This document shows, one piece after another, positions 55,583-64,000 of a stretch of 64,000 nucleotides of DNA. The notes under the pieces are model-generated. The model did not search any database and was not told the DNA's origin. It saw only the letters and a list, made by a program, of their open reading frames with translations. Both the position numbers and the translations under genes were made by a program. The number at the start of each line of letters is the position of its first letter. The stretch's first letter is position 1. Origin of the DNA: Candidatus Bathyarchaeia archaeon (GTDB lineage: Archaea > Thermoproteota > Bathyarchaeia > 40CM-2-53-6); assembly GCA_035935655.1 (NCBI GenBank), contig DASYWW010000012.1:79618-143617 (forward strand), in the 5' to 3' direction.

Positions 55583-55840
55583 CTAAAACTCGGCCAGCTG
55601 GAGAAATTTCAGGGCGTCGAGAAGTCCTTCAGCATAGGCGATGCAGGCGAGAGCAGTCACCGGTTTCCGTTTACCCAGATAGTGATCGGCGTCTCGAGCA
55701 TAATCGAGAACAAGTCCCAAGACGTAATTCGTCTGAGACAATTCGATAGGAGTTCGACGTCTCTTAACCTTCAACGCTTTGAGAGATTTCGATGTGGCCT
55801 CCAGATACCTAGCTGCCCTCTCACCCGCCCGCTCCCTCAT
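55583..55840 (-). CDS. DUF357 helical protein
   Basis: An 85-residue all-helical DUF357 protein; YARDADHYLGKRKPVTALAC followed by IAYAEGLLDAL is the family signature. Its ATG overlaps the dph5 stop (ATGA), an association seen in many archaea. Function unknown. Confidence 0.8.
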   Translation of the reverse strand: MRERAGERAARYLEATSKSLKALKVKRRRTPIELSQTNYVLGLVLDYARDADHYLGKRKPVTALACIAYAEGLLDALKFLQLAEF

Positions 55841-56613
55841 TTCACAATCTCCAGATCCGCATCATTCGCCCCACAGAAGACCTTCAGGAATTCTATCTCC
55901 ATAAAATGGAGCTTTCCGGGAATGACGAGGGAATGCGGGATTCTCCCAAAGTCTTCACCTCCCAGCTTTCCAAGCCTCCTAGCAAGCGCGAACTGGTCTT
56001 TCGATCCTATCCTTGCAACCCCCACACCCAGCCAATTTTCAAAGAAGGTGTCGGCAGCAACCAGCTTTGAGGCTGCCTCCCCCACTTTAAGCTGGTTGGA
56101 TTGTTCTGGTCTAACATCGAGGAGGACAAGTGAGTGAAGTCCTCTTTTCCTGTTATCCCTGATCGCTTCGATTATGGAGCTCGGCACGCCAGATGCTTGA
56201 GGCATTGTAACGGTCCGGCCGAATTTGTACCCTTGAAGGCCTGTAGCCCCACAAACCGCGGAGGTTATCGATGGCCCGTGTATGATTCTTGAGGATATTC
56301 CCCTCTTCGCCAGCTCGAGCCTGATGGAAACGTGGGTTGTAGCAACCATCGGATCACCCGGGACAAGAAAAGCTACGTTTCCCTTCCGCGCCGCTTCAAC
56401 AATCTGTCTACCGTTTTCATCTTCAATTTGAACCCGATTCAACACTAGAATCTTCTTTCTCAGAAGAACCTCAAGCTTGCTCAGGTCCAATGCAGGCATG
56501 GTGTTAGTGTAGAACTCGGCAAAGATACTGCCAGCATCCCGGGCTTCTTCCAATCCTTCTATGGTCAAGCCTCTCTCATCATTCAGACCTAGCCCGATGA
56601 ACGAAACGCCCAT
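55837..56613 (-). CDS. dph5: Diphthine synthase
   Basis: SAM methyltransferase building diphthamide on EF2. VSFIGLGLNDERGLTIEGLE is the N-terminus, VAFLVPGDPMVATTHVSIRL the SAM loop, HGPSITSAVCGATGLQGYKF a family motif. 258 residues, ATG start. Coupled to DUF357. Confidence 0.93.
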   Translation of the reverse strand: MGVSFIGLGLNDERGLTIEGLEEARDAGSIFAEFYTNTMPALDLSKLEVLLRKKILVLNRVQIEDENGRQIVEAARKGNVAFLVPGDPMVATTHVSIRLELAKRGISSRIIHGPSITSAVCGATGLQGYKFGRTVTMPQASGVPSSIIEAIRDNRKRGLHSLVLLDVRPEQSNQLKVGEAASKLVAADTFFENWLGVGVARIGSKDQFALARRLGKLGGEDFGRIPHSLVIPGKLHFMEIEFLKVFCGANDADLEIVK

Positions 56614-58714: not shown

Positions 58715-59020
58715 TGGAATCGCTTCTCAGCTATATGCAGCATCATCCACGGAGCGGCTACCGATGGTGTCGGGGAAGCATTGTGTTACCAAAACGGAAC
58801 GAGGATAGGGACACGAACTGTGCTTAGGCGTGGTTGGCAGATAGAAAGTGAGATATCGCTCGTTTGAGAGACGCGCTAAAGATGATCCTACCCGCATGCC
58901 AGGCCGTTCAACGCAAACTGAGCGTGTTCAGCATCAGCCCAATTTCTTTGCTTGATTTTCTCTCAGAAACGGTAACCCTTATTAGAAATTCGGCCGGGAC
59001 CGAGCCTTCGGCGGGTTCGT
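58715..59020. other. Intergenic stretch upstream of tRNA-Lys
   Basis: No convincing gene. An 81-codon TTG frame (58864-59109) runs into the tRNA and is not credible. CTTATTAGAAATT around 58977-58989, 32-44 bases before the tRNA, is the best TATA-like element for it. Confidence 0.4.
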
Positions 59021-59172
59021 GGGCCCGTAAACCGGACAGGTACGCTGGTCTAGTCGGGCAGCTCAGCCAGGTAGAGCAGCAGACTCTGGGGCTGAAGCTC
59101 TTAACCTGAAGGACGAGTCCCTACGACTCGTTCGGGGAATGGTCGAGGGTTCAAATCCCTCCGGGCCCGCCA
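59021..59172 (+). tRNA. tRNA-Lys(CTT) with three introns and encoded CCA
   Basis: Acceptor stem GGGCCCG/CGGGCCC, D arm GCTC-AGCCAGGTA-GAGC, anticodon loop CTCTTAA, T arm GAGGG-TTCAAAT-CCCTC and encoded CCA (59170-59172) are all present. Introns: 59030-59060 (31 nt, position 9/10), 59083-59096 (14 nt, 30/31), 59110-59139 (30 nt, about 43/44). Exons total 77 nt. The first two have full BHB motifs: CCCG/CGGG helix with bulges TAA and CAG, and CAGC/GCTG helix with bulges AGA and AAG, each cut after the second bulge base. The third has a 9-bp hairpin with a weaker outer part. One anticodon-stem pair (G27-A43) is a mismatch. Confidence 0.88.
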
Positions 59173-59230
59173 TGGCACGATTCAAATCCTCGCCCGACTT
59201 TGCCTACGATGAGAACGCGCATTCATTCCA

Positions 59231-59866
59231 GTGGGCCGCCTCCGAACAATTATAGCCTGCGGAGGCACGTTCGTTAGTGTGCAAACGACGAACGCCCATC
59301 TCTCAACTGACGTAGTCAGGGAATTCGTGATCGCTGGCCATGGAAACCTTGAGAAGGTAAAGAGAATGCTTGAGGAAAATCCAGGGCTACTTAACGTAGC
59401 GTACCCTTGGAGCGAGAGTGATCATGAGACCGCGATTCAAGGGGCAGCGCAAGTTGGCAGCGTGCCGGTCGCGAACTATTTGTTGGAAAACGGAGTACCC
59501 CTTGAAATCTGCACTGCCGCGATGCTCGGACGAAGAGATGAGGTGGAAAAGAGAATTAGAGAGAATTCTGACAACGTCAACTCGACCGGAGCACACAGCA
59601 TTCCTCTCTTACCTCATGCCGCCTGGAGCGGCGACCTCGAACTTGTCCAGTACCTCTTCAAGAATGGTGCCAGAAGTGGATCGTCATTGGCACTTCATAA
59701 CGCGGTCTCGAGAGGCCACTATGACTTGGTTGTCTGGCTGGTCGAGAACGCAATCCCTGATGTCGGTGCAAAGAACTTTCAGGGAAAGTCGCCGCTATCG
59801 GTTGCTGTCGAAAGCAAGCGGGAATCAATTGCTCAATTCTTGCGAGAGCACGGGGCCAAGGAATAG
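59231..59866 (+). CDS. Ankyrin-repeat protein
   Basis: About 200 residues made of ankyrin repeats: GHGNLEKVKRMLEENPGLLN, TAIQGAAQVGSVPVANYLLE, LLPHAAWSGDLELVQYLFKN, LHNAVSRGHYDLVVWLVENA and SPLSVAVESKRESIAQFLRE. No other domain. GTG 59231 or GTG 59279 are possible starts. Likely a protein-interaction scaffold; partner unknown. Confidence 0.82.
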   Translation: MGRLRTIIACGGTFVSVQTTNAHLSTDVVREFVIAGHGNLEKVKRMLEENPGLLNVAYPWSESDHETAIQGAAQVGSVPVANYLLENGVPLEICTAAMLGRRDEVEKRIRENSDNVNSTGAHSIPLLPHAAWSGDLELVQYLFKNGARSGSSLALHNAVSRGHYDLVVWLVENAIPDVGAKNFQGKSPLSVAVESKRESIAQFLREHGAKE

Positions 59867-62312: not shown

Positions 62313-62993
62313 ATGGATTTTGAAATTGAGAGAGAGCGATTGGTCCAAGCTCTCATCGCCGAGGGACTCTTGAAGACGCCTCAAGTCATTGAGGCCATGA
62401 GGAAAGTTCCGCGGGAACTCTTCGTGACTCCCCATCTTCGTCAGTATGCGTACGTCGACACTCCGCTGCCTACGGATTATGGTCAGACGATAAGTGCGCC
62501 ACTCGGCTAACCTGCCGGGCGTTACATGGCTGCCATAATGGACGAGGCCCTGGAGGTTCGACCCGGGATGAGGGTTCTAGAGGTAGGAGCGGGAAGCGGA
62601 TACCATGCAGCCACAATCGCGGAGATCGTTGGAAGGGAGGGACATGTGTTCGCAATCGAATATCTTGACAAACTGGTTGCCGTTGCGCGTGCGAACTTGG
62701 AGCGGGCCGGATATGCCGCGAAGATCACGCTCGTCCAGGCCGATGGATCCATGGGCTATCCTGACGGAGCGCCATACCATAGAATCCTCGTAACCGCCGC
62801 GGCCCCAAGAGTCCCACCTCCGCTGCTGGAGCAATTGATTGCAGAGGGAATACTAGTCATACCGATCGGTGGAAGGATGTTTCCACAGGAACTAGTCAGA
62901 GTCAGGAAGAAAGAGAACAACAGCCTCGTCCGTGAGTCCTTGGGAGGAGTCGCGTTCGTCCCGCTCGTCGGCAAGTACGGGTTTAGTGACTAG
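62313..62993 (+). CDS. pcm: Protein-L-isoaspartate O-methyltransferase with a 21-nt BHB intron
   Basis: Repairs isoaspartate using SAM. Reading straight through, an in-frame TAA (62508-62510) cuts the gene after QTISAPLG. The same frame resumes with MAAIMDEALEVRPGMRVLEVGAGSGY (SAM motif I GAGSGY). Joining 62313-62502 to 62524-62993 gives QTISAPHMAAIMDEAL, exactly the conserved PCMT motif, and a 219-residue enzyme. The removed 21 nt form a canonical BHB with their flanks, so this looks like an intron and not a mutation. ATG start; overlaps fen1 by four bases. Confidence 0.88.
62503..62523 (+). other. Archaeal BHB intron in pcm mRNA
   Basis: Outer helix GTG (62494-62496) with CAT (62525-62527); 4-bp helix CGCC (62497-62500) with GGCG (62518-62521); 5' bulge ACT (62501-62503), 3' bulge TTA (62522-62524); inner helix CGGC/GCCG with loop TAACCT. 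Cutting after base 2 of each bulge removes 21 nt containing the TAA. This is the same geometry as tRNA introns 1 and 2 at 59030 and 59083. Confidence 0.85.
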
Positions 62994-64000
62994 CTACCGA
63001 AGAATGACTCAAGTGTCTGTCTTCCAGTTTGATTAGCCATCGCCACCTTAGCTCTCTCCACCGCAGTTCTGACTCTTTCTTCGTTGAAGTCTCTTTCTCC
63101 ACAAAGGAATCGCACAAGGCCTTCGACATCAGGCTCGCGCCATTTCAGAGCATACTCCGAAGTAACCGCGGGCTTTAGGAAGATCTCGCGGATCCTGTCC
63201 AACTCTCGCGGGGCGACAACCTCTTTGTTTGCCTCTGCGACCTTCTCGATCATTCCATACCCCTTGATCAATTTCAGAGCTGTTTTTGGCCCGATTCCCC
63301 TGAAGCCGTCAGGGTTGAAATCTGTCCCAATGAGAATTCCCAAGTCTACAAGTTGTTCTCGTGAGAGTTGCAAAGCTTGCAAAGTCGATCCGAGCTCAAC
63401 AACTTCCGGTTCAACTTGAACGTAGGCCTCCCTCATGGGCAGCTTTCTCTTTCCACTAATCGCGAGATTCCGAACGAGTCGCTGAGCTCCGAAGAGAAGA
63501 GAATCGTAATCTTGACTCACCGCGGCCCAAACATCTCCGCGCGTAGCCATGTGAGCAGCCTGAGCTTCACCCTCAGACGGAGCTTGCACGATCGGAATGC
63601 CTAGAAACTGGAGAAGCTTGTGAGCGTCATCGATCATCAGGTCTTTGAGGCTAGAGGTCGCCTGGGCGTACCGCTTTGCCTCCTCAAACTTCCCAGTTGA
63701 TAGCGCAGATTCGTATCTGGTCTTGGCTTCGACCTTGACAACGTGCCTCCTCTTGATCTCAGCGTCTTTGAGGCTCGGAGGCTTACCGTCGAAGACATAG
63801 ACGAGTCTGATTCCTCGTTCTGCTAAGTTGGTCGTTCTATAGAGAAGCCCACTGAGGTGACTCGTAACTCGACTTTGGCGATCCATTAGAGGCTCGCCAG
63901 TAGGCCCGCGAATTATCGCGAGAAACTGATAGAGCGCATTGTATGCATCGACGGCAAAGGTCTTTCCTGAAAACTCGTCGAGAGATGCTTTTGCCCGAGT
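62990..64000 (-). CDS. fen1: Flap endonuclease FEN1, 5' end outside window
   Basis: Structure-specific nuclease of replication and repair; the frame is open to the window edge, so the first residues are missing. VDAYNALYQFLAIIRG, VYVFDGKPPSLK, QAPSEGEAQAAHM and AVSQDYDSLLFG carry the active-site acids; LIGTDFNPDGFRGIGPKTAL is the H3TH motif. The C-terminus RQTLESFFG is a PCNA-binding PIP box. Confidence 0.95.
   Translation of the reverse strand, partial: TRAKASLDEFSGKTFAVDAYNALYQFLAIIRGPTGEPLMDRQSRVTSHLSGLLYRTTNLAERGIRLVYVFDGKPPSLKDAEIKRRHVVKVEAKTRYESALSTGKFEEAKRYAQATSSLKDLMIDDAHKLLQFLGIPIVQAPSEGEAQAAHMATRGDVWAAVSQDYDSLLFGAQRLVRNLAISGKRKLPMREAYVQVEPEVVELGSTLQALQLSREQLVDLGILIGTDFNPDGFRGIGPKTALKLIKGYGMIEKVAEANKEVVAPRELDRIREIFLKPAVTSEYALKWREPDVEGLVRFLCGERDFNEERVRTAVERAKVAMANQTGRQTLESFFGS

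What the first reader, a model, noticed from the sequence alone, without database searches (positions are those of the whole stretch)
59021..59172. tRNA-Lys(CTT) split by three introns at non-canonical positions
Only removal of 31, 14 and 30 nt gives a 77-nt cloverleaf with CCA. Introns 1 and 2 sit in textbook BHB motifs and are cut at identical bulge positions; none is at the usual 37/38 site. The 14-nt intron has just a 2-bp inner stem with a 3-nt loop, near the lower limit. This implies a broad-specificity (heterotetrameric-type) splicing endonuclease, consistent with the pcm intron nearby.
Basis: partly seen in the sequence, partly recalled or inferred. Interest (0 to 1): 0.85.

Follow-up and report, generated by a model that had tools for sequence, protein, structure and literature searches.

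The report
Lysine tRNA gene interrupted by three introns
A soil Bathyarchaeia genome encodes its lysine tRNA in four pieces separated by three tiny introns at unusual positions; relatives confirm that the pieces are real and were interrupted step by step, in a genome where most tRNA genes are broken up, which extends a known archaeal pattern to a little-studied group.

Summary
Window 59021-59172 (+) is a tRNA-Lys(CTT) gene in which 31, 14 and 30 nt must be removed to give a 77-nt cloverleaf ending in CCA. In 17 genomes of the same family all 77 exon positions are identical, while the introns vary in sequence and length (p about 1e-6). Introns 1 (position 9/10) and 2 (30/31) are strict BHB introns. 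Orthologues next to dphB show a graded series of no, one, two and three introns. This is not a singular gene: about 20 decoded tRNA genes carry about 36 introns, and at least five others appear to have three. Three-intron tRNAs, non-canonical positions and this splicing machinery are already known in Archaea; what is new is the lineage, the intron density and the intermediates. Expression and splicing are inferred, not shown.

The parts
59021..59172 (+). tRNA-Lys(CTT) gene with encoded CCA and three introns
58979..58988 (+). TATA-like box TTATTAGAAA about 35-40 nt upstream (inferred promoter), present in most of the family-f1 orthologues with small variations
   Evidence: upstream sequences; promoter function inferred
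59010..59015 (+). leader motif GGCGGG, whose CGGG can pair with acceptor CCCG (59024-59027); seen in nearly all Bathyarchaeal orthologues with the 9/10 intron (variant GGTGGG in L029) and not in those without it
   Evidence: function unknown
59021..59029 (+). exon 1 (positions 1-9)
59030..59060 (+). intron 1, 31 nt, position 9/10, strict BHB (H CCCG 59024-59027 / CGGG 59055-59058; h GGG/CTC)
   Evidence: the last intron base 59060 varies A/G/T among relatives
59061..59082 (+). exon 2 (positions 10-30)
59083..59096 (+). intron 2, 14 nt, position 30/31, strict BHB (H CAGC/GCTG, h AGAG/CTCT, 2-bp inner stem)
   Evidence: helix kept across Bathyarchaeia through pair changes
59097..59110 (+). exon 3 (positions 31-44), anticodon CTT
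59111..59140 (+). intron 3, 30 nt, position 44/45 (45/46 and 46/47 give the same product); relaxed motif, CCTG/CGGG helix plus 8-bp intron stem, 3' site displaced by 2 nt
59141..59172 (+). exon 4 (positions 45-76) with T-arm, acceptor and CCA
55837..56613 (-). dphB-type methylase (diphthine synthase), the syntenic anchor used to find orthologues

Best explanation
This is the tRNA-Lys(CTT) gene of a soil Bathyarchaeia, and the only one found in its assembly. Its precursor contains three short protein-spliced (bulge-helix-bulge) introns at positions 9/10, 30/31 and 44/45. A heterotetrameric (alpha-beta)2 splicing endonuclease with the crenarchaeal-specific loop cuts the introns, and RtcB joins the exons into a 77-nt tRNA. 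The introns accumulated stepwise: 30/31 is widespread in Bathyarchaeia, 9/10 is shared with sister families, and 44/45 was gained in this family (a similar 44/45 intron arose separately in other Bathyarchaeia). Gene structure and conservation are shown; transcription, enzyme assembly, cleavage and ligation are inferred.
For: (a) Mature product: ARAGORN calls tRNA-Lys(ctt) only on the spliced forms, not with intron 1 or 3 kept. (b) Conservation: 0 of 77 exon columns vary in 17 family-f1 genes; among nine equal-length genes 18 of 75 intron columns vary, Fisher p = 9e-7. (c) BHBs at the demanded junctions: 0.0021 and 0.0017 of shuffles. (d) The same BHB registers with paired changes in orthologues: intron 2 helix CAGC/GCTG, CGGT/GCCG, CGGC/GTTG, CGGC/GCTG. 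(e) Natural gene versions with fewer introns: f5 has only 30/31, and f3 has 9/10+30/31 with CCC(G/A)(A/T)AGGTC uninterrupted; on a dphB tree the three-intron set is one group with 99% support. (f) EndA alpha and beta and RtcB. (g) EndA alpha lies on the same 244-kb contig as the window. (h) No second tRNA-Lys(CTT). (i) A BHB intron conserved in the genus in nearby pcm.
Against: No RNA data. BHB conformations of introns 1 and 2 are 9 and 6 kcal/mol above the minimum free energy of the full precursor, because they compete with the acceptor and D stems, so splicing probably needs folding during transcription or help from the enzyme. Intron 3 fails the strict 3'-site rule. The genome is a draft (96% complete, 65 contigs), so another tRNA-Lys(CTT) could be missing from it.
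Confidence: 0.93

Rival explanations
1. Same gene, but intron 3 is 28 nt (59111-59138), cut by the strict BHB rule, giving a 79-nt tRNA with a 7-nt variable loop.
For: CCTG/CGGG helix with 3-nt bulges AAG and GAA puts the cuts at 59110 and 59138. ARAGORN also accepts the 79-nt form. That BHB fold is within 0.6 kcal/mol of the minimum.
Against: 59139 (A/G) and 59140 (T/C) vary among relatives while all 77 other exon positions are invariant. Uninterrupted sister genes read CC.(G/A)(A/T)AGGTC with a 5-nt variable loop, matching the 30-nt product.
Confidence: 0.15
2. Same gene, but intron 3 is 59110-59139 (position 43/44), giving CCTGA|TGGTC.
For: Also 77 nt; ARAGORN accepts it.
Against: It would put the variable base 59140 (T/C) at position 44, which is A in the uninterrupted dphB-linked orthologues of the sister families.
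Confidence: 0.06
3. The locus is a decaying tRNA pseudogene and another gene supplies tRNA-Lys(CUU).
For: Standard finders do not recognise it; the assembly is incomplete.
Against: All 77 exon positions are invariant across three genera while the introns drift; no second gene was found.
Confidence: 0.02

Closest known systems
Three-intron tRNA genes of Thermoproteales (Pyrobaculum, Thermofilum), e.g. P. islandicum tRNA-Pro(UGG) with introns at 25/26, 37/38 and 56/57 (PMC4090602, PMC8450103)
   Same: Up to three short BHB or relaxed introns in one tRNA, including non-canonical sites, in archaea with (alpha-beta)2 endonuclease
   Different: Different lineage (soil Bathyarchaeia), isoacceptor and positions (9/10, 30/31, 44/45), with none at 37/38
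Split (trans-spliced) tRNA-Lys(CUU) of Nanoarchaeum equitans and Staphylothermus, joined at 30/31 (PMC3218864)
   Same: Same isoacceptor, interrupted at the same position 30/31
   Different: There the halves are separate genes; here it is one contiguous gene with cis introns
Multi-intron tRNAs of Ca. Caldiarchaeum (Aigarchaeota; PMC3293823) and Thaumarchaeota (PMC8450103)
   Same: TACK archaea with introns in the D-, anticodon and variable arms
   Different: Lower density there (13 of 45 genes in Caldiarchaeum)
Crenarchaeal (alpha-beta)2 splicing endonuclease with CSL (A. pernix 3p1z/3ajv, P. aerophilum 2zyz; PMC12397907)
   Same: Alpha subunit aligns over nearly full length with the catalytic residues and the K-P-K/R loop motif; beta degenerate
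   Different: Activity and quaternary structure untested; beta diverged (best PDB hits E 7e-16 to 2e-11)

Membership tests
Archaeal BHB-intron (multi-intron) tRNA gene | Standard cloverleaf only after intron removal | tested here: met
   77-nt tRNA-Lys(ctt); not recognised with intron 1 or 3 kept
Archaeal BHB-intron (multi-intron) tRNA gene | BHB or relaxed BHB at every exon-intron junction | tested here: inconclusive
   strict for introns 1 and 2; intron 3 has a strict 5' half only
Archaeal BHB-intron (multi-intron) tRNA gene | Exons conserved, introns free to vary | tested here: met
   0/77 against 18/75 variable columns, p 9e-7
Archaeal BHB-intron (multi-intron) tRNA gene | Spliced RNA product and excised intron | not testable with these tools
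   no transcriptome held
(alpha-beta)2 splicing endonuclease with CSL | Two EndA paralogues in the genome | tested here: met
   C12:155508-155765 and C62:301306-301545
(alpha-beta)2 splicing endonuclease with CSL | Catalytic Tyr-His-Lys in alpha, lost in beta | tested here: met
   alignments: alpha keeps YEHGPGIDH...RK; beta has FGKG and no His
(alpha-beta)2 splicing endonuclease with CSL | Crenarchaeal-specific loop with Lys-Pro/Val-Lys/Arg | tested here: met
   KPK aligned with A. pernix K44-P45-R46 (motif from PMC12397907)
(alpha-beta)2 splicing endonuclease with CSL | Heterotetramer with relaxed-BHB activity | not testable with these tools
   needs protein work
Split (trans-spliced) tRNA | Halves encoded at separate loci | tested here: not met
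   all four exons in order within 152 bp here, and contiguous in all 17 family genes

The most novel reading that the evidence does not exclude
This family of mesophilic soil Bathyarchaeia has the densest tRNA interruption known in Archaea (about 1.8 introns per decoded gene against the published 71 in 46 genes for Pyrobaculum calidifontis, with about six three-intron genes). It preserves the intermediate steps by which tRNA-Lys(CTT) went from zero to three introns, so tRNA intron gain can be studied outside hyperthermophiles.
Probability: 0.45. Interest if true: 0.62.

Novelty: new member of a known kind. Interest (0 to 1): 0.45.

Why it matters
Standard finders miss this gene, and most tRNA genes in this genome are disturbed in the same way, so Bathyarchaeal genomes may be scored as lacking tRNAs that they have. 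The orthologues give a rare natural series (0, 1, 2, 3 introns at one syntenic locus), which makes questions about gain, loss and reuse of intron sites testable. The match of dense non-canonical introns with a CSL-bearing two-subunit endonuclease in a soil lineage supports the published idea that enzyme and introns co-evolve, and separates it from hyperthermophily.

Tried and rejected
BHB motifs as evidence on their own: rejected, since about 4 strict BHBs occur per shuffled sequence of this length; one unrelated strict BHB in the gene (59066-59095) would destroy the D-arm. My first BHB scan used the wrong strand geometry and was discarded. Rfam at E up to 1 over 58900-59300 gave only chance matches and partial T-arm hits, no tRNA call. 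My intron-aware decoder found introns 1 and 2 unaided, but neither version placed intron 3, because its 3' site is irregular; that intron rests on comparison. The second version mis-solved this gene outright, so it was decoded by hand. FEN1 (62990-63886) looked truncated; it simply runs past the window end with an open frame. Lone tRNA 3' ends (L100, L203, L204, L212, L222) were considered as split-tRNA halves; one (L212) repeats the 3' half of tRNA-Val(GAC) about 5.6 kb away, which fits a partial copy or integration scar better.

Full report
What is there. The gene lies at 59021-59172 on the + strand. Removing 59030-59060, 59083-59096 and 59111-59140 leaves GGGCCCGTA GCTCAGCCAGGTAGAGCAGCAG GCTCTTAACCTGAA GGTCGAGGGTTCAAATCCCTCCGGGCCCGCCA (77 nt). 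ARAGORN calls this tRNA-Lys(ctt), fails if intron 1 or 3 is kept, and miscalls tRNA-Gln(ctg) if intron 2 is kept. The untouched gene is invisible to ARAGORN and to Rfam at gathering score.

Is it more than chance? BHB motifs are common by chance (about 4 strict ones per shuffle), so the useful test is whether they sit where the cloverleaf needs them. With exons kept and introns shuffled, a strict BHB at the demanded junction appears in 0.21% (intron 1) and 0.17% (intron 2) of trials, and the half-motif of intron 3 in 0.04%. An unsupervised search for the best cloverleaf picked introns 1 and 2 exactly, but not intron 3.

Orthologues. The gene sits 2.4 kb from dphB, and that neighbourhood recurs across Bathyarchaeia. 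The relatives are Candidatus Bathyarchaeota MAGs; the close ones come mostly from soil (from the record titles). In 17 genes of the same family (three genera, the window's own included) all three introns are present, all 77 exon columns are identical, and the introns vary in length (27-31, 13-23, 30-32 nt) and sequence; among nine genes of equal length 18 of 75 intron columns vary (p = 9e-7). The variation fixes the junctions: 59060 varies (A/G/T), so intron 1 is at 9/10 and not 8/9; both ends of intron 2 vary; 59139 and 59140 vary, which places them in intron 3.

Intron 3. The strict rule on the CCTG/CGGG helix would remove 28 nt. The invariance of all other exon bases, and uninterrupted sister genes reading CC.(G/A)(A/T)AGGTC, favour 30 nt and a 5-nt variable loop. 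Other Bathyarchaeia with a 44/45 intron have CGGG-AA|G, the strict register; the window's family has CGGG-GAAT|G, two bases longer. The 3' site is therefore relaxed, and its exact position needs RNA data.

History. Orthologues show no intron, 30/31 only, 9/10+30/31, 9/10+30/31+44/45, and a second three-intron set, 30/31+37/38+44/45. On a dphB tree the window's set is one group with 99% SH-aLRT, and each of 9/10, 37/38 and 44/45 needs three changes. The tree is a quick one of a single gene, with 15 of 50 inner branches poorly supported, so the order of events is a sketch; the intronless genes were assigned by eye.

Machinery. The genome has two EndA paralogues. Alpha matches A. pernix 3p1z_B (E 1.7e-41), with the Tyr/His/Lys residues and KPK aligned with K44-P45-R46 of the crenarchaeal-specific loop. 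Beta matches EndA but lacks Tyr and His. This is the composition of an (alpha-beta)2 enzyme. RtcB is present, interrupted in frame by what looks like an intein. No other tRNA-Lys(CTT) was found.

How it probably works (inference). The three BHB regions use mature positions 1-13, 21-35 and 39-44, so they can form side by side, but they exclude the acceptor and D stems. In the full precursor, forcing BHB1 or BHB2 costs about 9 or 6 kcal/mol, while BHB3 is nearly free (0.6). In some relatives the 5' part alone folds with the intron-1 helix, bulge and intron stem in its minimum (for example L041, L054, L064). I therefore expect intron 1 to be cut before the acceptor stem closes, or the enzyme to trap the BHB form.

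Genome context. A decoder with a threshold that 0 of 190 shuffled controls reached (best 34.1 against the cut of 36) solved 19 other tRNA genes with 33 introns; with this gene that is 20 genes and 36 introns, about 1.8 per gene. Five others appear to have three: Asn(GTT), Phe(GAA), Trp(CCA), Ala(GGC), Leu(TAA). Some of these are tentative: several introns have weak BHB scores and the Leu solution has an unusually short variable arm. The published maximum is 71 introns in 46 genes (PMC8450103). About half of the tRNA-like 3' ends remain undecoded.

Novelty. Multi-intron tRNAs with up to three introns, non-canonical sites including 30/31 and 45/46, relaxed motifs and CSL-bearing endonucleases are all published. 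tRNA-Lys(CUU) is itself split at 30/31 in Nanoarchaeum and Staphylothermus. I found no paper on Bathyarchaeal tRNA introns in the open-access library; GtRNAdb and subscription papers were not searched. I file it as a new member of a known kind.

Noticed in passing
GGCG-TT|A) holding an in-frame TAA; its removal restores ISAPHMAAIM. It is conserved in the genus with lengths that break frame in some relatives (20 nt in L243), so it is most likely spliced at the mRNA level.
   Followed up: yes
window 59010-59015 and orthologue leaders: A GGCGGG leader motif that can pair with acceptor CCCG occurs in nearly all Bathyarchaeal orthologues with the 9/10 intron (variant GGTGGG in L029) and not in those without it; it competes with both the BHB and the acceptor stem. 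Related lineages only, so few independent cases.
   Followed up: partly
G000 tRNA set (L094-L230): Most tRNA genes of this genome are interrupted; about 20 decoded genes carry about 36 introns, and five besides Lys appear to have three.
   Followed up: partly
G000 C11:125223-128030 (L240, L241): RtcB is interrupted in frame by roughly 490 residues inside one 1006-aa open frame, probably an intein in the tRNA ligase itself.
   Followed up: no
G000 C39:137268-137338 (L212) against C39:142872-142938: A lone tRNA-Val(GAC) 3' half about 5.6 kb from the complete gene, same strand: partial copy or integration scar; similar lone 3' ends in L100, L203, L204, L222.
   Followed up: partly
G000 contig C19 (5.2 kb, L093): Carries a bacterial-type tRNA-Ile(GAT)/tRNA-Ala(TGC) pair as in rRNA spacers; probably contamination of the MAG.
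   Followed up: no
L165 (labelled Hadesarchaea): tRNA-Lys(CTT) with introns at 9/10 and 37/38, the 9/10 BHB in the same register as in the window; separate gain at the same site, or transfer.
   Followed up: no
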